Assembly: GCA_022457155.1 (NCBI GenBank)
Contig: JAJGOT010001142.1
Location: 1 to 64,000 of the forward strand
Direction: 5' to 3'
Origin: Cladopsammia gracilis
Taxonomy: Eukaryota; Cnidaria; Anthozoa; Scleractinia; Dendrophylliidae
Length of the DNA stretch: 64,000 nucleotides
A program made the translations under genes and the position numbers. The notes under the pieces were generated by a model. That model did not search any database. It saw only the letters and a list, made by a program, of their open reading frames with translations, and was not told the DNA's origin. Of the stretch, positions 3,326 to 47,613 are shown one piece after another. How positions within the stretch are numbered: position 1 is the first letter of the stretch; every line of letters starts with the position of its first letter.

Positions 3326-3362
3326 TTTAAGTGCCTCGATATCATTTATCTTACCACTTAAA
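3326..3362. promoter_or_regulatory. divergent promoter with mirrored start motif
   Basis: The 37 bp between two divergent ATGs are bordered by an inverted repeat: each gene begins with CACTTAAAATG. So the motif directly abuts both start codons. Other Polinton 1 genes start with related strings (TTTAAAATG at 4003 and at 8585 minus, ATTAAAAATG at 8616). The layout recalls the TAAATG late promoters of poxviruses. Confidence 0.5.
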
Positions 3363-14133: not shown

Positions 14134-15490
14134 TCATGAGCGGTTCAATTGTCTATTGATTTCTTCAACAACTGCTGCAGTACGTAGGGGTCTCCCAGTG
14201 TTATCTTGAACAGATTGACTAACTGGTTGAACAAAAGCGGGTTGCGTTGAATGCGCCTTCACTTCAATGGGAATCAAATGTTGTACAACTCTTCGAAGAT
14301 AAACAGGACGTTTATCTCTACTAGTTGTCTTGACGATAGCGGCACGAACCCTTCCATCAGTTCCAGAAATAAGCTCTTCTACCTTCGCAAGTTTCCAATG
14401 ACATCTTGTCGTCGAATCGTTTTTCAGCAACACGATATCTCCGATTGATATCTCTCGAGCACAGTTTCCCTTGTTTCCAACAATCGACTGCTCTCGTAAA
14501 CTAGTAAGGTACTCTTTTCTCCATTGCTTAGTTGACTGCTGAAGTAAACTCTTGTGGTGGCGAGCTCTTCTCGTTAATGACTTGTAGGTGCTGATGACTT
14601 CGTAATGTGCGCTGTTTGGCGTTGAGCTGATCCGGCGACCATAAATAAGATCAGGAGGTGTCAAAGGATACGATATTGAATCTTCGTCGTCGTACATGTA
14701 TGTGATGGGTCTTGAATTGATTACTGATTCAATTTCCACAAGCACTGTTCGGAGCTCTTCGAAATTGAGGGTAGATCGGCCAAGGACTTTCTTGAGAGGT
14801 CTCTTGATACTACGAACCAATCTCTCCCAAAATCCTCCCCACCACGGGGCCTTTTCGATGATGAAATTCCAGGAAGTTCTTTGGTTGACTAGATAACGCC
14901 AGACTTCGTCTGATCGTGTTATCTTGCGTATTTCCTTGCATGAAGACTTGAATGTTTTCGCGTTATCCGATGTAAGAGTCGCGGGTAGTCCCCTTCGGCT
15001 AGCAAATCGTCTGAAGGAAAGCAGGAAATCTTTAACGTTAAGGCTTCTACATAGTTCTAGGTGTACAGCTCGCGTCGACGCACAGGTAAACAAACAAATG
15101 TAAACCTTCTTCGATTCGTTTCTTTCAACTTCAGGACTTTTGGTTTCGATGAAAAGTGGACCAACAAAGTCGAGACCAACATGCGTAAACGGAGGACCTT
15201 CGGATACTCTTTCGTCAGGCAGATCATTAGGCGGCACAGCACTATGACTTTCCCTCGTACTTGCGGCAAATTACACATTTTCGAATAAATTTCTTGACGG
15301 CTTCTCGTCCACGGAGCACCCAGAAACGTTCCCTTAGCGTTGTTAGAGTATCTCGTATTCCACTGTGTTGGATAGATTCGGGTGACTGCCTTATCAGTAG
15401 CTGAACAAATTCATGGCTTGCAGGTAATAGGACAGGTTTCCTCGAATTTTCGGGCAACGGTGAATTGTTCAATCGCCCCTTACATCTCAT
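14134..15490 (-). pseudogene. BEL/Pao integrase
   Basis: Two frames: 15490-15242 holds the H2C2 zinc-binding segment (HSGIRDTLTTLRERFWVLRG...CVICRK); 15237-14134 holds the catalytic core with LDFVGP (first Asp), TSDNAKTF (second Asp) and WWGGFWERLVRSIK (Glu), then INSRPITY and a C-terminal domain with IGDIVLLKND. A frameshift near 15238-15245 separates the two. It integrates the cDNA into host chromosomes. The reading runs up to the polypurine tract. Confidence 0.8.
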
Positions 15491-15560
15491 AACGCCTTCT
15501 TGTAGGCATAAACCGAACTGTGTGACAAACGTTCGCGGGTTCGACCTTTGATTTTTACGC

Positions 15561-15850
15561 TGGAGGATTTCAATTTACACTTCCCTGCGTTAAAAAGAAA
15601 TTGGGGGAAACAAAGAACTGCTTATCATGCTGTAAATTACTTTAATTCTCTTAGTCAGGTAATAAGACAATCTTCTAATGTAAATGTATTTAAGCGGAAT
15701 GTTTTTAACTTCTTAATCTAAGAGTTTTTACATAGTTTTTGATGTGTTTTTTGTTTTGTTTTTTAGTGTGAGTATTTTAGTTTTAATTCTTAGTTTTAAT
15801 CGAGGTCCTTTTTGAAAATCACTGAAGTGAAAGAGTTTTCCTCAATAAAG

Positions 15851-15892
<42 letters not shown>

Positions 15893-15893
15893 T
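15561..15893 (+). mobile_element. 5'-truncated LINE tail inside BEL pol
   Basis: On the plus strand, 15584-15721 encodes a retrotransposon ORF2 C-terminus (RTAYHAVNYFNSLSQVIRQ...FKRNVFNFLI, stop). A 3' UTR with AATAAAG and a (ATT)n tail at about 15850-15890 follow. The orientation is opposite to BEL. The 5' boundary is approximate. Confidence 0.7.
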
Positions 15894-15963
15894 TCCTTGG
15901 TGAACGATGATGCTTGCACTGACTTGATCCAGAGATGCTCGGCTTCCTTTAAATCGGTGACGT

Positions 15964-17069
15964 TTAAACTCGTTTCTTCTTTTTTGTACTCTCGTTCCGT
16001 ACTCGATTCTTGAACCTCTTTGAAAACTTGAGAACAAGGGCTGTTACACGGAGCAGATTTGTTAAGTTGTGAAAGCGCTTTATGTCGATTATCTGATCGA
16101 TTCTCTTCTCTGGGGTGTCGTCTGAATTATTCACAAGTGAATGCGTGAGAACTGGTGGATTCTTTACAGCTTCTTCAAGGACAATTTTATCTTCGGATTG
16201 TGTCGATTGGTTTACGGGCCATTCAGATTTTGGTTGGTAAAGGAATGCTGCGCCATTACACCAAGTCGTGTTAGTGGAAAGTTCTTTAGCAGACAAACCA
16301 CGAGAAGGATTCAATTCCCCGGGCAATGTCTCCAATCATCCTTGGAGGTCAAATTTCGAAGTTTTTCCACACGATGCTGAACGTACTGTTTCCACATTCG
16401 CTCATTTTTAATCCAACAGAGTGTGGTCATCGAGTCAGTCCAATTGATTGTTTTCAATTGTTTTCCGGCCGAATTGAATTATTGAACCAGTCGTGCGAGA
16501 AGAACCGCTCTCAATAACTCCAAGCGGGGAATTGACTGCTTCTTTAAAGGTGCGACTCTGGACTTAGAAGCAACCAAACGAACATCGACTCGGCCATCTT
16601 GATAGAGAGAACGCATGAAAATAACTGCGGCATACGCACGATTGGAGGCGTCGCTGAAACCATGAAGCTCGATTTCTATTGGACTTGACCGGAAATAACA
16701 GCGCGGGATTCGTACTTTGTAGAGGCATTTCAATTCTTCAAGTAAAGTGTTCCAAGTGAGAAGCAAGGTTCCTGCTAATTCGCTATCCCAGTCGATTTTT
16801 TCCAGGCAAAGTTCTTGAAATAAGATTTTCACTGTCAATTTGAGGAATGAACGCTTTGTCGACGGAAGTGAGCTGCCAAATTTGTACAGATCCTTAAGAT
16901 CGAAGAAAAATTCGTCAGAAACAGTGTCCCAGTTCAATCCTAGAATTTTGACAATCGTTTCGTTCTTGGCTTCGGAGCTTCCAGGAGTGGTTTGAAGATT
17001 TGGCGTATGATTCGTCATCTTCTGTTGTCGGTTCTTGGTTCGATTTGCTTTCACCGCGTGGATTTTCAC
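15964..17069 (-). pseudogene. BEL/Pao RNase H and connector region
   Basis: Frames 17069-16479 and 16335-15964, with the intervening sequence readable in another frame. Seen: LGLNWDTVSDEFFF, ELHGFSDASNRAYAAVIF (RNase H first Asp context), SIPRLELLRAVLLARL, then a WTDS...CWIKNERMW stretch across the gap and PGELNPSRGLSAKEL. This is the Pao-type region following the RT that removes the RNA strand. It is frameshifted against RT near 17050 and again between 16335 and 16480. Confidence 0.7.
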
Positions 17070-18345
17070 AACTGTCGATCGCTCTTAATAGGATACGTGA
17101 ATTAGAGTTCCATTTACGGAGATTAAAGCCGCCTTCGGCCATAAGTTGCTTGGTTTTCTTGTAAATGACCAGGCCCCAATCATCGTTGTCGTCTCCAGTG
17201 AGTAAATCGTCCACGTACAGAGATTTCTCGAGTGACTCAGCCATCTCGGGCTCGCTCTGCTTGTACAAATTCAAGTGGTGTGAAATTGTCGCAGCCAGAA
17301 TTGAAGGCGAAGGTCGCAAACCGAAAACAAGCCGGTTGAAACGATACTCAGCGATTTCTGGTTTAGCGGCGAACGGATCATCGTACCATAGGAAACGGAG
17401 CATGTCACGATCTTCTTGCTTGATGCCAACCATTAGAAATGCCTTTTCGATGTCTGCGGTGAGAGCGACGGCGTTCCAACGAAATTTGGCCAGCATATCG
17501 AAAATATGCGGAACGTAATTCTCACCAACTTCAAGGCAGTCATTAAGCGATCGTTCCTCCTTCGATGATTTAGCAGACCCATCATAAACAACGCGTACCT
17601 TTGTTGTTTCGCAATCTCGACGAACCACTGCATGGTGAGGTGAGTAATGAACGCTCGTTACGCTCAGCTCGTGTGCGCAATTAGATTTCGGCACCCTTTC
17701 GACAATTCCGGCTTCGCATTGCTGTTGAATAATCTTGTCGTAATTGCTCAGTAAATTCGGTTCGTTCCTTAGTTTATGATGCAGGGATCGCAGTCTCGAC
17801 ACACACATACCATAGTTGTTTGAGGTCGGCGCACAGTCTTCCTTCCAGGGCAATTTAGTCTCGTAGTGACGATTATTGAAGGAGATATCGGTACCGGGTA
17901 CCTGTCGTTCGATCTTGGAGTCGTCTCGAATTCCAGTAATGTCGGTTTCCCAGAAAGTTTTCAACATGTCTACAATTTCGTCGTTGTCGTTAGCTTCGGT
18001 AAAACATGGACCGCCAGAAATAATTAGATTTGAGACGGCATTGGACTCGTTTGGAGAGCAGGAAACGTTAGTTGGACCTAAGAGAAGCCAGCCAAACATG
18101 CTGTTTATCGCCGTCGGCCCAGAATGCCCACGAATTGTTTCACCGGTGACAATGTCCCAATAGTGATCCAAGCCGATGAGAATGTCAATACCGCATTGAC
18201 TTTCGGAGCTGTCCGCTAGCTCTAAACCTTGTAAATGAGGATAGTCGTTGATGTCTACATGTTTCAGTAGTGGCGAACAGATAACAGGGAAATTAAGCGC
18301 TGTGATCTCCAAGTATTCGTTCTGCTTGTTGCGAATGGGCAACAT
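16915..18345 (-). pseudogene. BEL/Pao protease C-terminus and reverse transcriptase
   Basis: 476 residues. The first 110 match the C-terminal part of the BEL aspartic protease region (IDILIGLDHYWDIVTGETIRG, FGWLLLGP). RT follows: RVVYDGSAKS, ALTADIEKAFLMVGI, YRFNRLVFGLRPSP and the catalytic SLYVDDLLTGD. The protease active-site half is absent because of a deletion joining gag to this frame around 18350-18400. The frame leaves the family after EGGFNLRKWNSNS. Confidence 0.8.
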
Positions 18346-19076
18346 CTCTGCTTTCCGTAGACGTTTTCTCCAAATGTATTTAAATGGAGAATTCCTGAAC
18401 AGTTAGGAATCTTTAGCAATTGGTCCATGTGCGCCGAGATAATCTGTTGAGGCCTTCCAAACCTTTCTTGTAAAATTTCGACAGCAGATTTGTAATTGGC
18501 GTCGGTCAATGATAATCCTTGGATTGCTCGAGATGCTGGGCCTTCGAGAAGGGAATTCAAATAATTGAACTTATCTACCGGTGAAATTGCTTTATTTTCG
18601 TGGACGGCCGATTTAAACGAGTCCCAGAAACTGATCCACTTTGTGATGTCCCCGTGGAATTTCGGCAAAATCAACTTTGGCAATTTAGCCTTTGCCAGAT
18701 TACTTGTAGCTCCAGATGTGGAATTGATCTGCAATTGATGGCCCTCAAGTCCGTTGTGTTTCGTTTGCAGTGCATCTTGTATTCGTTTTTGGTAGTCCAC
18801 AACTCGTTCCAACACCTTTTCGGCGTCTTCAATTTCCGCTTGAATGGCATCAACATTGCACAGCGATAAAACACTCTGGTCCAGTTCTTCGATGGTTTTA
18901 AGTTTGCCTGCAAGCAATCGATCCGAAACCTCCAAACTCTTTCTTTGATCGTCATTTAAGGTAATTCCACTGAGAATCGCGTCCACATCGCTTATTTTCT
19001 TTGTAATGACTCCCCGATTCGCTGCTCGTATCATCTTGACTCTCTCGAGCCTTTCTTTCGCTTCTTTTTCTGCCAT
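18264..19076 (-). pseudogene. BEL/Pao gag (N-terminal part)
   Basis: About 225 residues match a Pao-type gag: N-terminal coiled helix (AEKEAKERLERVKMIRAANRGVITKKISDVDAIL), then LPKLILPKFHGDITKWISFWDSFKSAVH, SPVDKFNYLNSLLEGPASRAIQGL and LQERFGRPQQIISAHMDQLL. The later gag, zinc knuckles and protease start are deleted; the last residues are read through the junction. It forms the particle shell in intact elements. Confidence 0.75.
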
Positions 19077-21612: not shown

Positions 21613-22595
21613 ATGACGAAAGAAGCCGCTCAAGTTCCTTTTGCAAGTGTGGCGGCGACGCAAGCCACGTTGACCGCCTCTTCTGTTCTTGTTACCGCTC
21701 AGCCCATTCATCAGAACGCCGTTCCTGGTTCTTCTTCGGAACAAACAAATTTGGAGGCGAATATCTCGTCTTATTTACTGTCATGTTTAAAAGTGCTTCA
21801 AGTAAATCTCGACTCGAGTCGCTTGCATGCGTTCTCGATGAACTGTCGACATTTGGCTATTGCCATCTTCACGTTGCATTTGATCAGTATGCTTCGAAGA
21901 TACCCGCCGTTGCTGAAGCAGATAGCAAATATTCTCGTAAGCAGTTTAGGAACTTGGTTTTGTCGAAGGGTGGACTTCCAGTAGTAGTTATTGACTGCAC
22001 TGACGATCATTATGTGCTGCTCCTAGAACGACCATTAGATAATCTACCAGTATGCCGTTGTTTGGATGAAATCCTCGCTTCCACGATAAGCAAAATGCAT
22101 AAAAAAGCATTTCCGTCCACGGTTTTGTGCTCAGCAGCTTCTTATCTCTTAAAACTCCTATCTACAGCAAGAGACAGAGCCATTGTCATTTTGATTCTGA
22201 GCTCAATGTTTTCTGGTAGAACTCTAAGAAATGTTTTTGGCCTTAATGAGAAGGTAGTTGCCAGTGCTCAGGCAGACGTTCAGGATTTCGTAGCAGTGAT
22301 GGAAGATAAAGAAACGTGCTTTGACAAGGAAGCAGAGAGTCACTTGCAAGCAACAGTTTGTCAGCTTGAGAAGGATGTGGAGGCTGCAGAACAAGTCCTT
22401 GGAAGAAAACGGGTTAGATTGGATGAGACAGAAGTGGATATCAGAGAGTTTGAAATTGAAAACAAGAGAAAAAGAGTTCACTATCTCAAGAACAATGGAG
22501 GAAAAGCAAAGAAGAAGATTTCTAGAAGGCTGTTTCAAAAATGGAAATGGTCCCTGAGAACTCAAAAAGGTAAAGGTAGAGCATGCGTGGACTGA
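21613..22595 (+). CDS. unrecognised protein behind a repeated TATA promoter
   Basis: Frame 21613-21984 starts MTKEAAQVPFAS at the first ATG after the promoter. Frame 21783-22595 (270 residues) overlaps it and carries the more protein-like sequence (GYCHLHVAFDQYASKIPAV, LPVVVIDCTDDHYVLLLERPLDNLP), ending with a basic coiled-coil stretch (residues 170-250, rich in E/K/R). A frameshift or unseen intron around 21785-21800 may join them. The promoter is repeated elsewhere, so the unit is probably mobile or duplicated. No family recognised. Confidence 0.4.
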
Positions 22596-22703
22596 CCGAA
22601 GACGGTCACGTTTTTTGAGGGAGCCGAGTTCTCTTCCCTCAATTATCTTTAAACTTCCATAGATAATTTATATCAGCATGAGAGTTACCCTTTAAGTACA
22701 CTT

Positions 22704-23558
22704 ATGGTAAAGAAAGGTCGAAAGAGCAAGCGTAAAGACAGAGGTTCTACGGACGACGAAACAACAGTCTCTAAACGTCCCAATATGGCGGCCTCTGACT
22801 TCGAGTCTGAACAACTGGGTGAACTGCAGGATGATCATTCCACTCTCTCTGACATACATGAAATACTCAAAAATCTACAGAAGTCAATGAGGAGCATTTC
22901 AAACGAAGTTGCAGAACTAAAACTCTCCTTCAAGAACCAAGAAACTGAACTAAGAAATGCCAAAGATGCGTTGAAAGCTGCGCTCGCGAGCAACAATCAG
23001 CTTAGGACGGAACTGCAAGAGACCAAAAAGCGCGTAAAAGAGCAAGAAGAAGATATTGAGGAGCTATATGATAGTATCGACACGCTAGAACAATACTCGA
23101 GAAAGAATTCCATCGAAATAGTGGGTATACCAGAGAGTGTATGTGAGAACGAAGAAGCAGTGCTGAAAATCGTGGCTGCCCTAAACGTGCAGGTTAAAGC
23201 GGAGGACATAGACATCTGCCACCGTGTAAAAAGGAAAAAATCATCTCCTATTATAGCAAGATTTATTAGCCACAAAGTCAAGAGAGCGCTATATAAGAAC
23301 AGAGTGCAGCTAAAGAATGTTAAGATGTCGCAGCTATTTCCAAGTGCTTCAGCTGCAGCTAGAGTTGCGTCAGATCGCATTTTCATTAACGAGAACCTGA
23401 CCGTAAATCGCCGAAAACTGGTAAAACTTGCCAACGATAAGAAGGCTGATGGATTAGTACTGGGAGTGTGGACTGTGGATGGGAAGGTTTTTGTTAAAAC
23501 ATCGCCGGAGGGAAGACCGATCCGAATTTATGAAGAAGCGGACCTTGATAACCTCTGA
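22704..23558 (+). CDS. LINE ORF1 protein (coiled coil, RRM, C-terminal domain)
   Basis: 284 residues: a basic N-terminus, a long coiled coil at about residues 45-135 (NEVAELKLSFKNQETELRNA, EEDIEELYDSIDTLEQYSRK), then an RRM-like start NSIEIVGIPESV, CHRVKRKKSSPIIARF and a C-terminal domain with FINENLTVNRRKLVKLAND. This matches the trimeric RNA-binding ORF1 protein of L1-type elements, which packages its own RNA. Intact. ORF2 begins 173 bp further on. Confidence 0.85.
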   Translation: MVKKGRKSKRKDRGSTDDETTVSKRPNMAASDFESEQLGELQDDHSTLSDIHEILKNLQKSMRSISNEVAELKLSFKNQETELRNAKDALKAALASNNQLRTELQETKKRVKEQEEDIEELYDSIDTLEQYSRKNSIEIVGIPESVCENEEAVLKIVAALNVQVKAEDIDICHRVKRKKSSPIIARFISHKVKRALYKNRVQLKNVKMSQLFPSASAAARVASDRIFINENLTVNRRKLVKLANDKKADGLVLGVWTVDGKVFVKTSPEGRPIRIYEEADLDNL

Positions 23559-23731
23559 TATAAATACTCCTGCTGGTAGGTTGAAATAAACATGATAATT
23601 TCGCATATGAGGGAAGTCTTAAGAAGCAAAACGATCTTGTTAACAGCTATTCGTCTACGCACAGAGCCCTACAAAACAAATCCTTTAGAACCCTACTTGT
23701 ATTTTGTTTGTAATATTACTTTTTATATGTT

Positions 23732-26700
23732 ATGCCCGGGAAAAAATTATGTAAATTTGTTTCGTTAAATGTTCGGGGAATAAGGAATTACGAAAAAAGA
23801 AGCAGTATTTTCTCTTTTCTTAAAGATCAAGAAGCCTCTTTCTATTTTCTACAAGAAACTTTTTCAGATCCTAGTGATGAATCACTCTGGAAAAATGAAT
23901 GGGGTGGTGAAATAATCTTTTCGCATGGTACTCGACACAGCAGAGGAGTTTGTATATTAATTAACCCATCTGTTAAAAAATTCAAAGTTGTTTACTCCCA
24001 TTGCGATACCTCTGGTCGATTTATTCTAATCAACCTGACCGTTGATTGTCTAGAACTGTCACTCTGTAACATTTATGTTCCTAATAATCATACAGATCAA
24101 CTGCAATTCATTCAAAATCTAAATAACTTGCTAATAGACAAATCCGAATTATCATCCCTTATAATTGGTGGTGATTGGAATTGCACCTTAACAAAGAAAG
24201 ACAAAAAGGGTGGTTTATCATGGAAACCAACAATCTTTCGTAACTCTATTTTAATTACAATGGACATGTTGAACCTCATCGACATTCAAAGAATTAAACA
24301 CCCAAATGTTGACAAATATTCATATGAATCAAAGGCTTTAAAAATAAAATCGAGAATAGATTACTTTTTAATGGCAAAAAATCTGGCAAAATATGTTCAC
24401 AAAGTTGACATTCAATCATCAATAGCACCAGATCACAAGCTAGTCTGTTTATCTATTCAATGGGAAAAATTGTCTACTCGAGGACCGGGATTCTGGAAAT
24501 TAAATAACAATTTACTCAAGGATGAAGATTACATCGAACGGATTCGGAAATCCTATCCTGAGTTCCGAAGTAAATACAGTTATGTCCAGGATGAACAAAT
24601 ACTTTGGGAACTTCTTAAAATGGAAATTAGAACCATTACGATTTCTTTTGCCAAAGGAAAAGCAAAAATTAATAGGGAGCGCGAACTTTTTGTTAAGGAT
24701 CAATTGGATGAGCTCGATAGGAAAATTTGTTTAAGTACGGATCTACAAAATGTAGACCATGAATTGAAGCAGTGTGATAATCTCAAAAAGGAGCTACAAG
24801 AACTATATGAAGCTAAAGGTGAAGCAGCGAGATTCAGAGCTAAATGTCTTTGGATTGAAAGGGGGGAACGGCCTACAAAGTATTTCTTTAATCTTGAAAA
24901 AAGAAATTACAACAGAAAAGTTATATCCGAACTAGAGGATGAAGATGGTGAGATAATTGAGAATGAAAAGCAAATCTTGTTAGAAATTGAACGTTATTAC
25001 AGAAATCTTTATACGTCTAAAATAAATGTCACGGAAAATCAATTTCAACAATTCACTGAGGACGTGCAATTGCCGCAACTGTCCAATGAAGAACGCGAGA
25101 GTTTAGAAGGTCCTTTAACCTTTGAAGAATGCAAGAACATTTTAACAACATTCAAAAATGACAAATCCCCTGGAGAAGATGGATTCACCGCTGAATTCTA
25201 TTCGACATTCTTTGATCTTATAGGCGACGATTTAGTTCAGTCTCTTAATGCTGGATATGAAAAGGGAAAACTATCAATCTCGCAACGAAGAGGGATTATA
25301 AGCCTTATACCCAAGGAGGACTCAGAGTTAAATCAGCTTCAAAACTGGAGACCAGTAACTCTCTTAAACGTTGACTACAAGATTGCTTCAAAAGCCATTG
25401 CTAAACGAATTGAACCACTATTACCTCATCTTATCCACCCTGACCAAACGGGTTTTGTAAAAGATAGATACATAGGTGAAAATATTAGGCTTATAAGTGA
25501 TGTCATGGAGCAAACTAACAAAGACAACATCCCTGGTATTCTTGTGTCACTGGATTTTCGTAAAGCTTTTGATACATTGGAATGGTCCTGTATACAACAT
25601 TCTTTGAAAGTGTATAACTTTGGAGAAGGCCTAAGAAAATGGGTCAAGGTGTTCTATAGCGAGATCGAAAGTGCAGCAGTTAACAATGGATTCGCAACTA
25701 ACTGGATAAAACGTTCTACTGTAGTGAGGCAAGGCTGCCCACTCTCCCCATATTTGTTTATTCTCTCAGCAGAAATAATGTCTAACAAAATTCGCCAAAG
25801 TAATGAGGTCCATGGTATTTCTTTAATTAGAAATGAAATTAAACTGAGTCAGTTTGCGGATGATACAAACCTTTTGTGTTCTGATTTAATATCAGTGGAA
25901 AATGGGTTGCAGCTTATAAGATCCTTTGGTGAAATTTCAGGGCTACAACTAAACATTGGAAAGACTAAAGCAATGTGGCTAGGCAAATTAGCCAACCAGA
26001 AAGACAAACCATTAAGTCTAAAATGGGTTGATAACCCGACGAGAATATTAGGAATTTTCTTTTCTTACGATAGTAAAGGAAATAACAAACATAACTTTGA
26101 TCTTAAAGTCCAAAGACTTCAAACAAATTTAGATATGTGGAGATCTAGAGACTTAACGTTGTTTGGAAAAGTTTTGATCATTAAGGCCCTAGGTGTATCA
26201 CCGCTGATATTCTCTGCTTCAAACATCGATGTCCCAAAAGAGTTTATAGGAAATGTGTAAGGTCGTCTTTTTAAATTTTTATGGAAAAACAAACAAGACA
26301 AGATAAAAAGGACGAGTCTTTATCAAGATTATGAAAAAGGTGGACTACGTATGATTGATATGGAAAATATGATAAAAGCATTACGACTAGCATGGATTCC
26401 TAGACTCTTAAAGAAAGGACATTTCAATTGGAAGACAATCCCAGACTACTATTTTAAGAAATGTGGTGGCCTTGATTTTTTACTATCTTGCAACTATCGA
26501 GTGAAAGACTTTGAATACCTACCTCGCTTTTATAAGGATATTCTACTCTTTTTCGATGAACTGAAAACCCTATATGGTAATACAGACTCGCGTGATATGA
26601 TTCTCTATCATAATAAAGAGATATTAATTGGAGCAACGCCTTTCTTTTTTCATGAATGGTTTAGTAAGGGAGTTAAGACGGTTGTGGACCTTTTGGATAG

Positions 26701-27457
26701 TGATGGAAATATCCTGCCATTCAATGAATTTAAATCTAAATATTCTTTGGAAAAGACCAACTTTCTTCAGTACTATCAATTTGTCAGCGCTATTCCAAAC
26801 CATCTTTTACAAAAAGGTAGAGAACTGATAGCTTTTTCTGATGGAAATATAATGAATGATGACTTAACTTGCTTTCCTCTCGATGAAAATAATAATATAA
26901 ACTTGTTAAAAACAAAATCAAAGGACTTTTACTGGCTGCTTGTCAACAAATTACGCACAAATCCACAAACCGGACCTAAACGGTGGATTAAATCGATCAA
27001 TCCTGAAAACATATGCTGGAAAGAAATTTTCCAATCAGTTCATAGAATGTGTGTGGAAAACAAATTACGCGAGTTTCATTTTAAATTCATTCATAGAATT
27101 ATTGTGACCAAGAAGGAACTTTTCAGGTTCAAGATTAAGGAAGATAGTGATTGTATTTATTGTGGAGAAGAGGATTCTATTGATCACAGCTTTATAAGTT
27201 GTCAGTTCACTGTGTCGTTCGCTCAGAAGGTTTTGCAATGGTTTAATACAACTCACAATTCTGCATTCAATCTTAACACTGAGGAATTTTTATTTGGGCT
27301 ATCTACTGTATCTGATGTATTACAGAAAAAAATAAATTACACTCTACTGTTTTTGCGTTACTACATTTATAAAAGAAAACTCCAGAATGATTCATTACTG
27401 ATCTCTGATTTTATAAAAAAAGTAATGTACAAATATAGAATTGAACTCTATTCATAA
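23732..27457 (+). pseudogene. LINE ORF2: endonuclease and reverse transcriptase, single in-frame stop
   Basis: One frame of 1,242 codons broken only by TAA at 26258-26260. The AP endonuclease occupies about residues 1-235 (NVRG, LQETF, GGDWN, SRIDYF, APDHKLVCL). RT has SPGEDGFTAEFY, LIPKEDSELNQLQNWRPVTL, VSLDFRKAFDTLEW, RQGCPLSPYLFIL and the catalytic FADDTNLL. The C-terminal half after the stop has a CCHC-like CIYCGEEDSIDHSFISC. The enzyme nicks DNA and reverse transcribes at the nick. The single lesion suggests a young copy. Confidence 0.9.
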
Positions 27458-27660
27458 GTCAATAAATCTTGATCTGTAAACTAATTAAAATTCAATCTCT
27501 TATTTACCCCCTCTATATCTAGGTGTACTTCAATCCAAATGTTGTAACATTGTATTTCTCTTTTTTGTTGTTGTTGTTGTTGATTTTGTTTGTACTTGTA
27601 ATATATCTTGTTTGTAAGCTTGGTTTTGTAAAATGCAAAATAAAAATTAAAAAAAAATAG

Positions 27661-28217
27661 ACTTCACCAATGAAAAAAAAAAAGTAAATAAATAAATAAA
27701 GGAAAAACAAGATCGACCGTGGAGCAGAAAAGGCAATTTATGATGTACTTCATGAGCAAGCAAGAGCGCGTTGTCGAAGGTATTGTACTTTAAGTTCTTA
27801 ATTTGTTCTCCACATTCATCATAAAAAATGATAGCTTGAAATGCTTTATTCTTCTCCTGTTTTAAAATGTTTAAAAGCACAGAAGGGTTGATCATGGGTG
27901 TGGGTGTGGGGAGGAAATCCTACGCAAGGGCAGAACCTGTTCTTCCAGTAAGTCTTTTAATAGCCAGAACGGTGTTTTCTCAATCTCAGTTACTGTGACT
28001 GTAGATTTTGCAAGCTTTTATCATCTGGAAATTTGTAAATTTAAGGCTTTCCAAGGGATAATTTTCAAGCTACATATTTATAGATGATGAAAAGAACACA
28101 TCTTGTGAATAAATAAACAATCTACATGTAATAATGAGTACTGTATGCAAGAAAGCAAAAGCTGCTGATCTCACTTGTTATTGAACTTCATAAAATTCTA
28201 TACATTTAATTTTGTAG
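27661..28217. other. spacer or 5' intron before transposase-protease gene
   Basis: Holds (AAATA)n near the LINE tail. A minus-strand ORF of 82 residues (27647-27895, with LNILKQEKNKAFQAIIFYDE) reads like protein but has no start context or family match. The last bases, TTTAATTTTGTAG, form the splice acceptor of the next exon at 28218. Confidence 0.4.
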
Positions 28218-29291
28218 GTGGGGAAATGAAGGCACTGGTTATGTTGAGCATGAAGGAAGAATTCAAGGAAAAGAAATGCGGCAAATTGCAAACAAGCACC
28301 TTAAGAAGGCAGGAAAACCACTTATAAAGAGCAAGGAAACCTGTCGCTCTTGGGGTAAATGTAGGAACAGGAGGTATAGGCAAGCAAAGCAACATAGGGG
28401 AAGGAATCTGTGGAGTTTCATGAGGCCACAAAAAGATTTGCACACAAGGCACATCAATGTGCATTATAATAGAGCACACATTAAGAATTATACAAGGTTT
28501 GCGTTTGGAAATTCAAGCCATAAACCCTTTGTGTGCAGACGTGCAATGGATGACAAAGCCTATGTACGTTGTGGCACATCAGAAGGCTTTTCAAGGCCTC
28601 TTCATGCACCAGTTCAGCTCACAACAAAAGAAGGACAGCATAGTATGCTGCCATCATCAGACTACCCAGATCCAGTTGGTTACGTATCACCTGGTGTTAT
28701 CCTTATCGTTAATGACATGAAAGATGTAGAACACAACAACCGGCAATCATTTGTTCCTTCTGATGTGACTGTTTCTGTCACTTGCAAGCCAAAGAAAATA
28801 TACCCGAGCTCTGCAACTAACTGGGCAAATGATATGGTTGCTGTGAGGCTTCTGTTCCGAGAAGAACACGAAATTTGCAAAACTGAAGAGGATGATGTTG
28901 CCTCTGCTGATTTTCCAGACCATCTAGTTCCTTATGTCATTTGTCTACGAGATTCCCTGATGCAATATCAACTTATGACAATCCCGGCAGATTACCTGAG
29001 AGAGAGTGAAGGTGGTGACCACCTTGCTCGTGAACAGCTCAGGATTGGTGTGCTGATTCAGGGGATAGCTGATACCATTGAAACTCTTCAGCCTGCCAGG
29101 GAAAATGCAGATGTGGAAACAATTCTTGCTGGCATAAATGCAATTCAACCATTGCTTGCAACACTTGGTAAGAAACGTTATATAAAAATATTGTTACTTG
29201 TTAGTGTTTATAGTAGCACAGGTACATTGTTTGCAATTTTTGATAAAACAGTTTATGCTTTTATATATTAACATGTACATGTTTGGAGAAG

Positions 29292-29297
<6 letters not shown>

Positions 29298-29358
<61 letters not shown>
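29298..29358. repeat. (TA)n microsatellite
   Basis: About 30 TA units in the first intron of the transposase-protease gene. Confidence 0.95.
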
Positions 29359-29362
<4 letters not shown>

Positions 29363-32300
29363 GGGAAGACAAGCACCATCATTACAATGATACTCATTCA
29401 TAGCAACAGGACCCAAAAATGACTTTCCATTTTACTGGTTGTTCCAGGGTGGATATAAATGCTATCTTCTGGATAAATTGCTATCCATAGTGATTTATCC
29501 GGTGGAAAGCGCTATTCACTCTTTGAACAACCAGGCCAGATCATGTTACAGTTTACCCTGAGCATTATTTTGGCTTTAGAGGTCACATAATAAATATATA
29601 GGCATATTTTAAACAGAGTTTAATTTCAAAAAGGTTTCAAACGGGAAAGCACTGAGACTGAGTTTAAGGGTTTACAATGATGCCTGCGCTTAAACCTTGA
29701 TACACCTTTTTATGTATTTTTTTTAGCATCAAAACTTACAAACGGGGATTGGGATGTTCAAAATGACTTTCAGGAGGCCTGTTCAAAGGCACGCCATGTA
29801 CGGAAGTTTTTGGAGAGCAAAGGCATCTTAAATCACTGGTGAGGTCCTTCATAAAACTTTTAAAATACTGCAAACATAACAGGATCAAGATGAATCTATT
29901 TTATAGTATGTATTTAAACCATATTTTCCTTATCAAGAATACATGACAATGACGCTGGCAATACGATACATATATTTTCTTCAGAGGAGTACATTTCCTT
30001 GGAACTGGAGATATTTCGAGGCTTGTGACATTTGTTGTAAATTCTATATACAGTAAATAAAGTAAAGTAAAACAAGCTCCTTGTGTTGTACATGTATTTG
30101 ATTTCCTAGTCCTTTGTTTCTAGCTTTAATATAGTATTTTCAATATACAATTTTATGTCACCAGACCAATTGACATTCAGACGACAGATGCTGGCCCAGG
30201 GGTTTCTAGTCACGAAAGAATGACTCAGGTGAGGATGGCTGAATACTTCTTGATCAATGCCCTTGATTTGCAAGCCCGCTTTCATTATGCACCAAACGAT
30301 TCTTCCATGCACATAGCAGAGAAAGTCATGCGGTCACTGAACGAATGTTTGGGTTATGGAAGAGCCATACCCTTAAAGTATAGCAAGACAGTTTTTGAGC
30401 ACATGGACACACAGTGTCTTTCGGAATTGTCTAATGATCTGATTGAAAAAGTGCAGAGAGAGAATGAGGCAAGTGCAGCGAAACGTTGTGCAAATGCTGT
30501 AACGAAGAGATTTAATGGAAAGAGGTGTATGGGTAATTCAATTCATGCAAGGGAGCCATGGTATGAAACCAACCAACAATTTTTCTTTGATGAAGAGTTC
30601 ATGCTTAAATGTGCCCATGCCTCTTCTGCTGTCATTCTGGACAAATGTACTGGAAAAGAGTACTTTAAGTTTATCGTGGAGTTTTTTGAGAAACATTACT
30701 TCATGTACGATAATGGATTTGAGGGCATACGTAATGGTTGCACTACAACTGAAGGGGAACAGTGCATTTTCCATAGAGAAGTGGAAAACCAGGCTGTTCT
30801 TAAGAATGGTTGGCGTGGTATTCCTGTACAACGTGTTCCACCACCTGTTCCAGATTATTCAAGGAAAGATGGTTTTCATTATGCCACTCCTGAACAAATC
30901 CTAAGTGGTGAACTTGAGGAAGCTTATTGCCTGAAAAAAGAGAACGTGATGGATACCTGTTCACGAGAAAAAGATGACTTTAATCCGAGAAGGAAACTTG
31001 AAGAACTGCTTGTGTCTTGCGGTACTCCCAATCTGGAGGTAGAATTGGAACATGCATCAGACAGATCTGTTTCGGCTAAAGTTCAAGACAGTAATGACAC
31101 TCTAGGAAAAGTTATGGCTAAAGTTGATGACTTTGTTGCGACCTATACTGGCAAGGATTTGGAAAGGGTAGTTATTAGTGAAATCCATAGAAGGCATGGA
31201 ATGAAAGCAAAGTCAGAAGTTTCGAAGAAAATCAATGCAAATGCAAAAGCTGCAGAAAAAGCAAATTGACTGGGAAAAACATATACACGAAAACACCTTG
31301 CAAAAGCTTTATGTTTCTCAGTTGGACCTTTATTTGAAAAATGCTGGGTATAGTGAAGCCAACTTAGCCAAGAAGGGTCTCACCAAGCTGAAGAAGGTGG
31401 ATGCTATTAAAAAGCATTTCTATCAGACCCCTATAAAGTCTATTAACACTTCAACTACATGTACTAACACAGTGCAGCTGACCCTTCCACCTGTGTCAGC
31501 TGGAAGTCCTATAAATGTGAGTGGTTTACAAGTACCTCCTTGGGGTTGCACAGTATTCCTGCCACTGCTGGGCATGAGAACAACGATAAATACATGCCCA
31601 ATTGACAATTTCCTGGTCATCACATACTTATTCTGGAAGACAAATTCTGCTTTTAACCACGAGTTGACCCAATCTTCTGAGCCCTATGCCAACACAATGA
31701 TCCAAGTGTTTAATTTATTTGATCAGGGAAAATTTGGTGATGGTAAATTTTGCTGGCTTCAGCAGTTTCCCGGACAGTTTGACTTTGTCAACCAAACTAC
31801 AGTTGATGTTTGGGGAAATGAAGATGACCTCTTCGTGTCACGAGTCGGAGCTTCACTACATTCATCTTTCCAGAGTCATTGTTCATCTCCTCATTGCCCT
31901 ACACCACACTTGGATGTACACACAAAAAGAATTTCACTAAGGTGAATAATTATTTAATGGCATTTTATTAATAGCATATACTACACATACATCTGTTAAC
32001 AGATTTAACAGTGCAAAATGGTAAACACATGTTTGCTGACATCTTTACGAAAATGCACATGCCCAGATGGATGCTGATATCAAAATGTTAGAAATGATAC
32101 TTTAAGATCAAAATACTTCATTAAATACCAAAGCTGGTGGACGTCTTATATAAATGTTAAACATAAAAACATCACATCTTCCTTTCAGCGCAAATGGCAT
32201 TCCACCACCAGCATTTATTCAGTCAGCTTTGCAGGAGTGGATGAATCAGAGTCACCTCTTAACTACCTGTGCAAGAACATTACCTTCTCCGCTTGCTCCA

Positions 32301-32399
32301 GGAGCAGACTTCTACTGGGGATTCACAACATCTCAAGACCCATTCACTGGTCAATTTGTGTGAGAATAAAACATTCTTTTGTCTGATTTCTGTCAAGCA

Positions 32400-32401
<2 letters not shown>

Positions 32402-32453
<52 letters not shown>
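32402..32453. repeat. (TA)n microsatellite
   Basis: About 26 TA units in the fourth intron of the same gene. Confidence 0.95.
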
Positions 32454-32456
<3 letters not shown>

Positions 32457-33024
32457 ATGCAATATAAATAGTAATAATATTGTATTTTATAGGTTACATG
32501 TAGTATTGTTTTCTTTTTATGCTAGGCAAGTTCCACAAGCTTACTGCAATGGCAAAAGACTATGCTCAAACAGGAACTTCATAAATGGCGAGTCCCCTTT
32601 TCTGTTTATATCTCTGGATGTATTTGCAGGGCAAGGTATCATCAATGATGTTTCCCAGCTACCTGATCAGGTCCATCTTAGACAGCGAAGGTCAGGATAT
32701 AAACTACGACTCCTTTTGACTTGTAATATTGGTGTTGGAATTGTGTTAAAATTACATGCATATTTAACATGAAAATAAAATAATAAAATTAAACGGAAGA
32801 TGTGAATTTTTATTGCCCTCCACAGATATGCCTTGGGTGGTTTAACATTCTGGAAGCCGAGTGGCCATTATCGTGGAGCTGTCACTATAAACGGCGATTG
32901 GTTTTATTACGATGGGCTCTGGGAGAGGCGTCAGGTTGGCAAAGGCCTAGTAAAGTGTGCTGGAGGACGGCCTTCGACTCCTCAGGGATTTGTCTTGTCA
33001 CATTGTTTGTACTTTTTCCTTTGA

Positions 33025-33749: not shown

Positions 33750-34489
33750 CTACTTGCTTGTTGTGACAAGTTTGAGTTTGTTTAGCATGCTGCGTTTGCC
33801 ATCGGGGCTTTGCAGATGTTTGATTGTCACATGTTTTAATTGTTTGGCATGCTGTGTTTGCCATCGGGGCTTTGCAGATGTTTGTTGTGACAATTAAAGT
33901 TTTGAGTTTGTTTAGCATGCTGCGTGTGCCATCGGGGCTTTGCAGATGTTTTGTTTGTCACATGCTTTAACTGTTTGGCATGCTGTGTTTGCCATCGGGA
34001 CTTTGCAGATGCTTGTTGTGACAAGTTTGAGTTTGTTTAGCATGCTGCGTTTGCCATCCGGGCTTTGCAGATATTTGTTGTGACAAGTTTGAGTTTATTT
34101 GGCATACTGGTTTGCCTTCGGGGCTTTGCAGACGCTTGTTGTGACAAGTTTGAGCTTGTTTAGTATGCTGCCTTTGCCATCGGGGTTTTGCAGATGCTTT
34201 TTTGTCACATTTGTTATTATTTAGCATGCTGCGTTTGCCATTGGGGCTTTGCAGATGTTTGTTTGTCACATGTTTTCATTGTTTGACATGCTGTGTTTGC
34301 AATCGGGGCTTTGCAGATGCTTGTTGTGACAAGTTTGAGTTTGTTTAGTCTGCTGCGTTTGCCATCGGGGCTTTGCAGATGTTTGTTGTGACAATTAAAG
34401 TTTTGTGTTTGTTTAGCATGCTGCGTTTGCCATCGGGGCTTTGCAGATGTTTGTTTGTCACATGTTTTAATTGTTTGGCATGCTGTGTT
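33750..34489. repeat. 62-64 bp tandem repeat array, left part
   Basis: Eleven copies of a unit with core TTTGCCATCGGGGCTTTGCA, followed by either TGTTGTGACAAGTTTG or TTTGTCACATGTTTT variants. The array continues on the far side of Polinton 2, which is inserted in it. Confidence 0.9.
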
Positions 34490-34790
34490 AGTAGTTATAG
34501 GGGAGGCAGTCAAATACCGTTTTCAGACCCCTAAATAAGCCGCCAAACGCCCGAGTTACCGACCCCCAAGGACTCATTACATTCGTCCTTGGGGCCGGTA
34601 ACTCGGGCGTTTGGCGGCTTATTTAGGGGGTTGAAAAACAGTATTTGACGTGCCTCCCCTATAACTACTCTACGTGCCCCTCCCTCAAACCCTGTGAGGG
34701 GGGGGGGGGGGGCAAATGCGTTTTTACCGAGCCCGCCCGCAACGGCAAGCGAGATATAACCAATTGGAGAAATCTAAAACCATTGTATAA
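34490..34790. repeat. left terminal inverted repeat with 180 bp palindrome
   Basis: 34490-34669 is itself a near-perfect palindrome (AGTAGTTATAGGGG...CCCCTATAACTACT, centred near 34575). The inner part up to the first gene promoter (GAGGG, CCGAGCCCGCCCGC, CAATTGGAGAAATCTAAAAC) matches the right end inverted. A (G)n run of about 16 lies at 34697-34712. Confidence 0.9.
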
Positions 34791-43683: not shown

Positions 43684-44923
43684 ATGGCCGTGCAACCAAA
43701 CCTCCTTCCAACGAACGCAGAGAAGACTCTTGGTGCAATGAAAGCAGAGCGCACCGTAAAGCGCATCACATTTGATCGCTCTACAGCCAAGCCTGGCGAG
43801 ACCCTGTACGTTTCGGTGCCCAGCTCAACGAACATGAGGTTATCGTGTCGGGCTCGCTTGCCTTGCTCTTTAACATCGACCTTGCCGGCGGCCACGCAAA
43901 CAACTATCTTGTACAAAATGTACTAGTTGACAGGCTCGTTGTCAAGTTTGCCGCCACCACTCTACAGGACACCGTTGGGTACGATATTTACAAAATCTTT
44001 GAGGACCTTTTCCTTTCTGTTGACAAGAGAGACAACATGCTCCCTGAGGGCATCCAGAGTGTAGACTTGAGCAAGATTCGCTCTAATGCCGGAGACAAGA
44101 AGACCTCTAGCGTGGATGCGGAAAACAAGCTGGAGACCATTTACAAAAACAAATACCGCATCAATCTTGACCACCAGATTCTAACAGACCACGGCGTCAT
44201 GTACCCACAGACACTCTACAACGATCTCATATTCGAGATTACGCTCGCCCCTCCTTCTCAAGTTGTCAAGGGTTCGGATGCAAGCAAGCTTGTGTACAAG
44301 TTGACAAATATCCAGCTTGAGTACGAGACAATCCGAAGTAAGCAGCTGGCTGACGAGGCAGCAAGTGTATATTCTAGCGGAAAGGCGTTTGCCTACGACC
44401 ATATCATGCGAGAGGAAGTGGTCCCCTTCTCGAAGGGTTCAGACGCTAGGCTGAATCTCAGGGTGAACCCTCAGCGCAGGTCACTAAAAGCCATCCTTCT
44501 ACTATTCATCGAGCCCTACACGGCAGGAGCTAGGGACTCAGAAAAATACTTCAATCCAGACATAACCAAGGTGAATGTCACCATCAACGGCTCCCCCAAC
44601 AGGATTTACAACGAAGGCATCAACGGGACCGACATGTGGAGTGAGGTCAGCCGACTTTTCAACGTAAAGGGTGGCGGCAGGCCCAACATGAATCTGGCCA
44701 AATATCTCACGGGCAACAGTTCGGCCTCCTTATCGACCTTCGGTCCATGGCTGATACAACCCTACATGGCAACGGTCAACGCCTCGTCAACACAAAGGAC
44801 GGCGTACAAATTGAGATCGAAAGGACAACCTCCGGCTCGGGAAACGTGCACTGCCACATCTACACCATCAGCGACTCACAGATGAACATCATGGACAGGC
44901 AGCTGCAGGCGGTTCAGTATTAA
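43684..44923 (+). pseudogene. double-jelly-roll major capsid protein, two frameshifts
   Basis: About 412 codons from MAVQPNLLPTNAEKTLG. A shift near 43810-43825 leads to SGSLALLFNIDLAGGHANNYLVQN, VDRLVVKFAATTLQDTVGYDIYK, KNKYRINLDHQILTDHGVMYP and LLFIEPYTAGARDSEKYFNP, with NGSPNRIYNEGINGTDMWSE. A second shift near 44715-44740 leads to the family C-terminus (DGVQIEIERT, DSQMNIMDRQLQAVQY) ending at 44923. The arrangement matches Polinton hexon-like capsid proteins that build the virion shell. A (TA)n box lies 8 bp before the ATG. Confidence 0.75.
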
Positions 44924-44942
44924 GAAAACACACATATAGAGA

Positions 44943-45542
44943 ATGGATCCAAGAAAGCTGCCATTCAATGCACTAATTATCGGGCCAGCTAACTCTGGCA
45001 AAACACAATATCTTCTGAATCAGCTACGCGGGCCCTTCAGGGGCAAGTTTGACTATATCGTTCTATTGTGCCCCACCTTTGTTCACAACAAGACCTACGA
45101 CGGCTTCGTGGACAAGGAGTCACGCATTTTCGTGATAGACTGTCAGCAGCATGAGATTGAAACATGGTTAACTTTAGCCAGTTATCACTTCAACGGGACA
45201 AACACGCTCTTTGTGCTCGATGACTGTGCTGCGTCGAAGGATGTGAAAGGCCGCACGAGTCAACTTGTGAAACTAGGCTTCAGTGCTCGCCACAGCGGCC
45301 TTTCCGCGTGGGTGCTAACCCAACAGTTAACCAGCATTGCGAAACCCTTTAGGGAAAACGTCGCAGCGATCGTGCGTTTTTACACCCCATCAGGAAAAAC
45401 AACGATGGCTATCTTCGATGACTATGCCGGTGAGCTCTCACATGAGGAGTACAAAGAGCTTATTGCAAAATTAAAGGAGCACAAGTTTTCTCACCTGGTT
45501 TTCTCTCTGCGACACCCATATGGGGTTGAAGTGAAAATGTGA
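44943..45542 (+). CDS. A32-type DNA packaging ATPase (Polinton 2)
   Basis: 199 residues, intact. Walker A GPANSGKTQYLL (residues 13-24), Walker B TLFVLDDCAAS (about residue 90), then the sensor-like AWVLTQQLTS and YAGELSHEEYKELI. The same role as the ATPase at 3363 but quite diverged from it, so the two Polintons are separate lineages. It lies 20 bp after the capsid gene; a weak CACATATAG box precedes the ATG. Confidence 0.85.
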   Translation: MDPRKLPFNALIIGPANSGKTQYLLNQLRGPFRGKFDYIVLLCPTFVHNKTYDGFVDKESRIFVIDCQQHEIETWLTLASYHFNGTNTLFVLDDCAASKDVKGRTSQLVKLGFSARHSGLSAWVLTQQLTSIAKPFRENVAAIVRFYTPSGKTTMAIFDDYAGELSHEEYKELIAKLKEHKFSHLVFSLRHPYGVEVKM

Positions 45543-45564
45543 AAACATATATATACTCTGAACC

Positions 45565-45804
45565 ATGAATACCTCAACCAGTATCCACAAGCTCACGGTC
45601 TTTTCACAGCTTCTGGGTGAATTGCAGAGTCAGGCGGAGGAGATGCAAATCCAGATAATCAAAGACGCTGGCGTGGACGATCTGCGCCTCATGCTTCTTA
45701 GCCGCTATCCTTTGAAACTCACTGTGATGCCAGACACCATGACAGCGCTTATATGGGAGATTGAAAGTCTTTTGCCTGAGATCAAGAGAATAATTGAAAA
45801 ATAA
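45565..45804 (+). CDS. small Polinton 2 protein, unknown
   Basis: 79 residues, intact, starting MNTSTSIHKLTVFSQLLGEL, mostly helical. ACATATATATACTCTGAACC precedes the ATG, almost identical to the capsid gene leader (ATATATACTCTGGCT). Lies between ATPase and the next structural-type gene. No family recognised. Confidence 0.6.
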   Translation: MNTSTSIHKLTVFSQLLGELQSQAEEMQIQIIKDAGVDDLRLMLLSRYPLKLTVMPDTMTALIWEIESLLPEIKRIIEK

Positions 45805-45819
45805 ATATATATATACACA

Positions 45820-46416
45820 ATGGCAACAAGCCCAGAAGACGTGGCCACATTTGAGAATGAAATAATGCAGATGCTAGCATCAGAGCCTGATAGCTCCTTG
45901 CCATCAGCGATTCCTGAAGTCTTAACAGGTAATGACATTCCGGCTCAACGCGAGAAGCTGGCAGTCCTTGTTTCAACCGGCAAATCAAAAGAGGCCATTG
46001 GTGCCCAGCTCACACACGAGCAGGTGAAGCGCCTGACAGATAAAGAGGTTGAAAAGTTTTACAAACGGTATGAAGCCTATGTCGGCAACAAGACAACCGA
46101 GTCTCTGATTGACAGCGTTATAATGCTCGTAACCAAAGGCGCCGGCATGGTTGTTAAGATTGACGATGTGGAGGCGTTTCAGAAAGAACTCAAAAATGAC
46201 TACATGATTAACCATGAACTGTCATCTCTTGCTGGAAACCTTGCACTGCGATGTGGGCGATTCTTGGCCTTGGCCAATGCTGTTTTGATCACTACAAAAC
46301 ACATCGACTTCAAAAAGGAGCTAGAAGAGCTGCCCCCTCAACCTTCTCCACCTGTACACCCAAGCAGAGACGGTGAAGGTTATCCACTCGAGGGTTTTGA
46401 TGAAGTTGACACATAA
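45820..46416 (+). CDS. Polinton 2 conserved protein, probably virion
   Basis: 198 residues, intact. Contains LTHEQVKRLTDKEVEKFYKRYEAYVGNKTTESLIDSVIML, a hydrophobic KGAGMVVKIDDVEAF segment, and ELSSLAGNLALRCGRFLALANAVLITTKHIDF, then a proline-rich tail. I recall this protein from other cnidarian Polintons but not its function. ATATATATACACA directly precedes the start. Confidence 0.6.
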   Translation: MATSPEDVATFENEIMQMLASEPDSSLPSAIPEVLTGNDIPAQREKLAVLVSTGKSKEAIGAQLTHEQVKRLTDKEVEKFYKRYEAYVGNKTTESLIDSVIMLVTKGAGMVVKIDDVEAFQKELKNDYMINHELSSLAGNLALRCGRFLALANAVLITTKHIDFKKELEELPPQPSPPVHPSRDGEGYPLEGFDEVDT

Positions 46417-46486
46417 TCTGAAAGGAACCACGAAGGAACCATGAAGGAACCACGAAAGTTTTAAAATAAAAATATATAATATATAC

Positions 46487-46919
46487 ATGATGGCGCAACC
46501 ACTCGAGACGGTACCTGAAGAAACAGTCGCGCCAGCACCCACAACCAACACGCACGTTACCTCTGATACCCCAAAGACTGCTCCAGCCAAAAACCCGGGT
46601 CGTGTTGCTTCTGGCAAAGCACTAGCAGAGCGCAACCGTCTGGCAAGAGAGGCAAAAAACAAGCACAAGGTTCTAAAGCAACAAACGAGCCTGCCCCAAG
46701 CCAGGCGAATACAACCACCAGCAGTGACAACAACTCTGGTTTCTGGATTCTAACGGTTGTCGGGGTGATTATATCCGCTTGGGGCGTCTATTACCAACGC
46801 GAGGCCATTATGAATACACTTGGGCGCAACCAGGCCCCGACCCGTGCGCCGGCAGCAGAGGTGAATGAAGTTCAAACTCCCCCACCCACACATAGACGAA
46901 GAATTCGCGAGATGGATTA
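46487..46919 (+). pseudogene. Polinton 2 single-pass membrane protein, one frameshift
   Basis: Starts MMAQPLETVPEETVAP behind ATATATAATATATAC. A basic helix (KALAERNRLAREAKNKHK) precedes a shift near 46680. The continuing frame gives a Ser/Thr-rich linker, a membrane helix (GFWILTVVGVIISAWGVYY) and a Pro/Arg-rich tail ending REMD at 46919. Likely a virion membrane protein; function unknown. Confidence 0.55.
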
Positions 46920-46940
46920 AAAAAATCTTATATATACACC

Positions 46941-47162
46941 ATGGCTGACAACAAGCTCGTGAAAGCTGTTCTCGATGCGGCCACAATCACTGGCCTTGTC
47001 GCAGGTATTGGCTGGATTGGCGAAAAGATCATCAAAGAAAATCTCAAGGCCGATCCCAGGTCGAATCTCATGAACTACGTGAAGTTCACTGCCGCCGTGG
47101 CTGGGAGCATTGCGCTCAAGAAATATCTCGAGGACCAGAAAATCCTGCCGACCCCAACATAA
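46941..47162 (+). CDS. small Polinton 2 membrane protein
   Basis: 73 residues, intact: MADNKLVKAVLDAATITGLVAGIGWIGEKI with one hydrophobic helix, then a second weaker one (FTAAVAGSIALKKYL). CTTATATATACACC precedes the ATG. It belongs to a run of small membrane proteins between ATPase and integrase. Confidence 0.65.
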   Translation: MADNKLVKAVLDAATITGLVAGIGWIGEKIIKENLKADPRSNLMNYVKFTAAVAGSIALKKYLEDQKILPTPT

Positions 47163-47177
47163 ATCATATATATAGCA

Positions 47178-47606: not shown

Positions 47607-47613
47607 AACACAT

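What the first reader, a model, noticed from the sequence alone, without database searches (positions are those of the whole stretch)
28218..33024. Spliced gene fusing a DDE transposase, a SAP-like segment and a USP-like cysteine protease
Six exons join in frame by GT-AG sites, and all three catalytic residues of a DDE core and Cys and His boxes of a ubiquitin-protease-like domain are visible. A transposase carrying a deubiquitinase-like domain is unusual; it may protect its own complex from degradation, or be a domesticated host gene. Only one frameshift, in an A-run, is present.
Basis: partly seen in the sequence, partly recalled or inferred. Interest (0 to 1): 0.75.

Follow-up and report, generated by a model that had tools for sequence, protein, structure and literature searches.

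The report
Dead jumping gene with ubiquitin-protease tail
This looks like a broken copy of an animal jumping gene whose DNA-cutting enzyme carries a C-terminal protease of the kind that removes ubiquitin or SUMO tags; other families of jumping genes have picked up such proteases too, so it is a new variant of a known theme rather than something wholly new.

Summary
The gene is real but larger and more damaged than described. Exons at 28218-33024 use GT-AG sites. The e2-e3 join gives a split stop at the acceptor relatives support and is open only with an acceptor 30 bases upstream. One frameshift lies in exon 3.

All candidate catalytic codons survive (Asp 28549, Asp 30187, Glu 30319; Cys 31595, His 32866, Asp 32911), with USP-type zinc Cys.

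In those five the active-site flank resembles the SUMO protease USPL1 (Tyr at His-5, Phe at His+1); the window's branch differs.

Precedents exist (Ginger1 with OTU/Ulp1; a Trichomonas transposase with peptidase C19). No terminal repeats were found above chance, and copy number could not be measured.

The parts
21783..22580 (+). N-terminal part of exon 1 (helical N-terminal region; ends ...LRTQKGKGR)
   Evidence: tblastn of 9 relatives, 27-38% identity, E 4e-26 to 6e-48; ATG in this frame at 21783; true start uncertain because of a probable frameshift just upstream
22581..27705 (+). LINE retrotransposon inserted into exon 1 (ORF1 22653-23558, EN+RT 23714-26260, zf-RVT 26261-27457); ends inferred from where homology stops and resumes
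   Evidence: Pfam RVT_1 2.6e-35 and Exo_endo_phos 3.6e-8, zf-RVT 2e-7; 7 of 9 relatives continue across this point within one protein; no shared flank word of 8 or more bases, so no target duplication seen
27706..27779 (+). continuation of exon 1 (NKIDRGAEKAIYDVLHEQARARCR plus two bases of the next codon)
   Evidence: tblastn 48-70% identity over 23-33 residues in 7 of 9 relatives; frame read
28218..29167 (+). exon e1: end of the putative DNA-binding region, first catalytic Asp (DD, codons 28549-28554), strands 2-3 of the core, start of the helical insert
29727..29838 (+). exon e2: helical insert
   Evidence: donor TG|GTGAGG gives a split TGA with acceptor 30165
30135..30164 (+). 10-codon extension of e3 if the upstream acceptor is used (an open route across e2-e3)
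   Evidence: 13 of 23 relatives' tails listed show the same ...LR border (6 end exactly there)
32189..32359 (+). exon e4: USP fingers region
   Evidence: in frame; matches P0012 residues 522-589 at 40% identity
32526..32690 (+). exon e5: second Cys pair (32545, 32563) and palm strand
32826..33024 (+). exon e6: USP His box (His 32866) and Asp (32911), stop codon 33022-33024
   Evidence: same box in relative P0033

Best explanation
It is a dead, intron-bearing copy of a gene of a cut-and-paste-type DNA transposon. The encoded protein, about 1300 aa when whole, had a helical N-terminal part and putative DNA-binding region, a DDE/RNase-H-like transposase core probably related to bacterial ISAzo13 transposases, and a C-terminal USP-fold cysteine protease. 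Proposed action (inferred): the transposase binds and moves the element, and the tethered protease strips a ubiquitin-family modifier from proteins at the element, either the transposase itself or silencing proteins on its chromatin. Shown: exon structure, homologues, conserved candidate catalytic residues, predicted folds, and the lesions in this copy. Inferred: transposition, protease activity, and the identity of the modifier and substrate.
Confidence: 0.78

Rival explanations
1. The protease acts on SUMO rather than ubiquitin: the transposon carries a USPL1-like deSUMOylase that counters SUMO-dependent silencing or modification of the transposase.
For: In 5 of 5 full-length relatives the residue five before the catalytic His is Tyr and the one after it is Phe. 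The USPL1 structure paper (PMC8983731, sections 8, 9 and 12 read) says Tyr451 (His456-5) and Phe457 are conserved in all USPL1 orthologues and are His and Tyr in all ubiquitin USPs. Only four residues separate that Tyr from the His, as in USPL1, and the strand before blocking loop 1 lies only 34-36 residues from the His, which suggests that both blocking loops are short or absent; lengths in ubiquitin USPs were not measured here. USPL1 chains rank 1, 3 and 6 in the VIA comparison, tied with ubiquitin USPs. SUMO promotes silent chromatin (start of the abstract of PMC8131101, listing). Ginger1 and Mutator elements carry the SUMO protease domain Ulp1 (PMC2836005 passages).
Against: The window copy and relative P0033 have Phe/Trp and Tyr at these places (GLTFWKPSGHYRG), so the signature is not family-wide. 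Z differences under 1 are ties, and no USPL1 chain is among the 50 Foldseek rows shown. Other USPL1 contacts with SUMO (Arg324, Phe335, Asn398) were not compared.
Confidence: 0.35
2. The protease removes ubiquitin, protecting the transposition complex from the proteasome or acting on DNA-repair factors.
For: USP fold with intact Cys-His-Asp and zinc-type Cys; the window and P0033 have Tyr after the His as ubiquitin USPs do. Similar roles are proposed for transposon VTD proteases (PMC9741609 passages) and for Ginger1 proteases.
Against: The conserved His that ubiquitin USPs have shortly before the catalytic His is missing in the 7 members where this box was seen (Tyr in 5, Phe/Trp in window and P0033). 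No substrate evidence.
Confidence: 0.4
3. A domesticated, multi-copy host gene family derived from a transposon.
For: Introns, an exon border shared with relatives, no TIRs found, presence in corals and Mytilus.
Against: This copy is broken in several places including a LINE in coding sequence; two different proteins within one species (P0012, P0048).
Confidence: 0.12
4. Two neighbouring genes (transposase; protease) joined only by the reader.
For: The frameshift and stop at 31267-31269 split the window ORFs.
Against: 20 of 67 relatives have the core Glu motif and the Cys box in one predicted protein, 5 have all six residues.
Confidence: 0.03

Closest known systems
Ginger1 DNA transposons (OTU or Ulp1 C-terminal domains)
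   Same: DDE transposase with a C-terminal ubiquitin- or SUMO-type cysteine protease, in Hydra and Aplysia among others (PMC2836005, passages)
   Different: Ginger1 core is Gypsy-integrase-like and its proteases are OTU or Ulp1; here no Pfam integrase match in window pieces or 20 relatives scanned, and the protease has the USP fold
Trichomonas vaginalis XP_001314237.1 (transposase_11 plus peptidase C19)
   Same: transposase joined to a USP-class protease, the nearest reported architecture (PMC2836005)
   Different: transposase_11 core; sequence not available here, so no direct comparison
Bacterial ISAzo13 family and eukaryotic Zator
   Same: profile similarity over the second Asp to Glu region and, more weakly, with a cyanobacterial pair over the first Asp region; Zator-ISAzo13 link from PMC10045372 and PMC5718144 passages
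   Different: a helical insert of about 130 residues before the second Asp, a large N-terminal region and a protease tail; the 7 ISAzo13 proteins are 206-697 aa and were not scanned for other domains; no Zator sequence was available
Helentron VTD and OTU deubiquitinases
   Same: transposon-borne deubiquitinase, also in cnidarians and molluscs; cnidarian VTD genes are fused to various regions, some transposon-associated (PMC9741609, passages)
   Different: rolling-circle transposons; VTD has an Asp-x-His active site, here Asp follows His by 15-17 residues
USPL1 SUMO isopeptidase
   Different: host protein without a transposase; the window copy and P0033 lack the Tyr/Phe pair

Membership tests
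USP (peptidase C19) family | hand-shaped papain-like USP fold | tested here: met
USP (peptidase C19) family | Cys at helix 1 start, His and Asp on late strands, in that order | tested here: met
   C751, H953, D968 on the model's secondary structure; present in window; invariant in 6 of 6 aligned sequences
USP (peptidase C19) family | four zinc-binding Cys in the fingers | tested here: met
   two Cys pairs in window and relatives; three of the four align as invariant, the fourth sits at a different spacing in the window; zinc binding itself not testable
USP (peptidase C19) family | match to a family sequence profile (PF00443) | tested here: not met
   no such hit for window pieces or 20 relatives, several of which lack the whole domain; the claim is therefore 'USP-fold domain', distant from Pfam's family
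USPL1-type SUMO isopeptidase | Tyr five before and Phe one after the catalytic His | tested here: inconclusive
   met in 5 of 5 full-length relatives, not met in the window copy or P0033
USPL1-type SUMO isopeptidase | cleaves SUMO | not testable with these tools
   needs an enzyme assay
DDE/RNase-H transposases | D, D and E on strand 1, strand 4 and the helix after strand 5 | tested here: met
   model of P0019 shows the same order of elements (pTM 0.85)
DDE/RNase-H transposases | structural match to a solved transposase | tested here: inconclusive
ISAzo13/Zator | profile similarity of the catalytic core | tested here: inconclusive
   hhalign 33.1 vs shuffle maximum 27.2 (n=100), but probability only 11% and no Pfam DDE hit; 7 of 9 fetched bacterial loci used
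ISAzo13/Zator | 3-bp target duplication with TIRs | tested here: inconclusive
   scan gave 2 candidates, 10 shuffles gave 0-2 each: chance level
Ginger1 | Gypsy-integrase-like core | tested here: not met
   no Pfam rve match in window pieces or in 20 relatives scanned
SAP domain | match to a Pfam SAP profile | tested here: not met
   0 of 6 linker segments at E up to 10

The most novel reading that the evidence does not exclude
An undescribed superfamily of animal DDE transposons, ISAzo13-like at root, captured a USPL1-like SUMO protease, making a second, fold-unrelated case (after Ulp1 in Ginger1 and Mutator elements) of a transposase tethered to a deSUMOylase, plausibly to undo SUMO-dependent silencing at its own copies; the branch in this window then changed the active-site flank and perhaps the modifier.
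Probability: 0.28. Interest if true: 0.75.

Novelty: new variant of a known kind. Interest (0 to 1): 0.52.

Why it matters
Several unrelated transposons carry proteases that remove ubiquitin or SUMO. A further capture, with a USP fold and in a transposase family that Pfam and NCBIfam do not recognise, strengthens the idea that such tags are a general battleground between hosts and mobile DNA. The USPL1-like residues give a concrete enzyme test of which tag matters. My ten literature searches (listings seen, five papers opened in part) did not show this family described; Repbase was not available, so it may be listed there under some name.

Tried and rejected
Genome copy number: the genome search (own genome, PF00443) was asked 15 times and never answered, so copy number and copies with ends are unknown.

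Terminal repeats: blastn-short between flanks gave four short matches at E 0.78, nothing better. A TIR+TSD scan gave 2 candidates, including 20939/33456 with TSD GAA, against 0-2 in each of 10 shuffles; rejected as chance. The long 'inverted repeats' are mostly AT-dinucleotide runs.

Viral or prokaryotic origin: no relative in viral contigs, prokaryote genomes or phages. Searches used one short pattern each, so the absence is weak. The named viral structures at the top are mostly ubiquitin hydrolases.

Sequence search against PDB: coiled-coil-type noise and one unrelated hit at E 0.69. NCBIfam: nothing near a cutoff in 5 relatives. SAP: rejected. VTD-type protease was considered because cnidarian transposons carry it; rejected because its active site is Asp-x-His. 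A bacterial-type promoter scan does not apply to a eukaryote.

Failed scripts: one search stopped after printing the bacterial proteins, crashed, timed out; redone. Some matches's first list are false; one search lists 19, of which P0024 and P0064 are false, leaving 17. The first two attempts to file this report were returned (a check; then a format error).

Full report
WHAT IS THERE. The window is eukaryotic, animal-like DNA rich in mobile elements. The e1-e2 join is in frame, and the last four exons read through to a stop at 33022-33024. Exon 3 is broken once by a frameshift. The e2-e3 join is not in frame at the acceptor that relatives support: the two leftover bases TG meet A and give TGA. 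An acceptor at 30133-30134 gives an open join but adds ten residues that full-length relatives lack. The splice pattern has comparative support: of 23 relatives' tails listed, 13 show the same ...LR border at the end of exon 3 and 6 end exactly there, and the named coral proteins P0012 and P0048 continue into sequence like exon 4.

THE GENE IS LONGER. Full-length relatives match about 21792-22628 and 27715-27783 on the same strand. Between them lies a LINE with ORF1, endonuclease and reverse transcriptase. The coding sequence runs KGKGR up to 22580 and NKIDRGAE from 27706, against KGLGRYKIDRGAE in P0058, so the LINE sits in coding sequence unless an intron lay exactly there. No target duplication of 8 or more bases was found. 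A gap at 27780-28216 looks like a GT-AG intron; 17 predicted proteins read straight across that point (two false matches dropped), though whether annotators removed introns is not recorded. A further frameshift near 21.8 kb is likely (inference). The copy is therefore dead as a coding unit, although every candidate catalytic codon remains: Asp 28549 or 28552, Asp 30187, Glu 30319, Cys 31595, His 32866, Asp 32911.

THE FAMILY. Three protein searches gave 47, 20 and 3 hits, 67 different proteins. Many are single-exon fragments. Named sources are Porites evermanni, Paramuricea clavata (twice) and Mytilus edulis; most carry no name, and P0048 bears the name of an ion channel that its sequence here does not bear out. 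The database lists no Pfam domain for any of them; scanning window pieces and 20 relatives gave nothing above a Pfam cutoff (the lowest E was 0.0015, Not3, in P0034). Five relatives, P0050, P0051, P0055, P0066 and P0067 (1005-1320 aa), carry the first Asp, second Asp, Glu, Cys, His and Asp motifs in one predicted protein (5 of 67); 20 of 67 have at least the Glu motif and the Cys box together. P0050 (1274 aa) comes from a contig whose listed length is 4485 bases, which leaves little room for introns. The fusion is thus real and shared.

HOW IT MIGHT WORK. Inferred: a cut-and-paste transposase that brings a ubiquitin- or SUMO-removing enzyme to its own DNA. Either it protects the transposase from tag-driven removal or it removes tags from silencing or repair proteins. 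SUMO promotes silent chromatin (start of the abstract of PMC8131101, listing). Which modifier and which substrate cannot be decided here.

KNOWN OR NEW. The combination is not unprecedented: Ginger1 transposases carry OTU or Ulp1 domains, Mutator elements carry Ulp1, Helitrons OTU, and one Trichomonas protein joins transposase_11 to peptidase C19 (PMC2836005 passages). New here, as far as the ten searches show, is a Pfam-less transposase family in corals and a mussel with a USP-fold domain having, in one branch, USPL1-like residues. Element ends, copy number and activity are unshown.

Noticed in passing
27780-28216: Intron-like GT-AG stretch (AGGT at both borders) inside the coding sequence; 17 predicted proteins read across this point without it, so it may be an intron gain or insertion.
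   Followed up: partly
22653-27457: LINE with ORF1, endonuclease-RT and zf-RVT parts and one in-frame stop at 26258-26260, inserted into the transposase coding sequence.
   Followed up: partly
3279-4001 and 9858-11324: A32-type ATPase (E 1.5e-9) and DNA polymerase B (E 3.9e-11), a set that suggests a Maverick/Polinton (the label is recalled knowledge).
   Followed up: no
43776-50278: A second such set: integrase (rve, 47482-48564, below Pfam cutoff), polymerase B (48584-50278) and an unmatched 369-aa ORF at 43776-44885.
   Followed up: no
14134-18402: Minus-strand retrotransposon-like remains (DUF5641, RVT_1 just below cutoff).
   Followed up: no
56607-57332: MULE/ZSWIM-type transposase fragment with an ALS2CR8-like N-terminus.
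   Followed up: no
33757-34637: Repeats spaced about 62 bp followed by a 47-bp, 94% inverted repeat with 24 bp between the arms, downstream of the gene.
   Followed up: no
relatives P0001, P0004, P0012, P0049, P0053 versus P0050, P0051, P0055, P0066, P0067: Two branches: one with an extra linker before the protease (the window's), and one without it and with Tyr/Phe around the catalytic His. The His box of the first branch was seen only in the window and P0033.
   Followed up: partly
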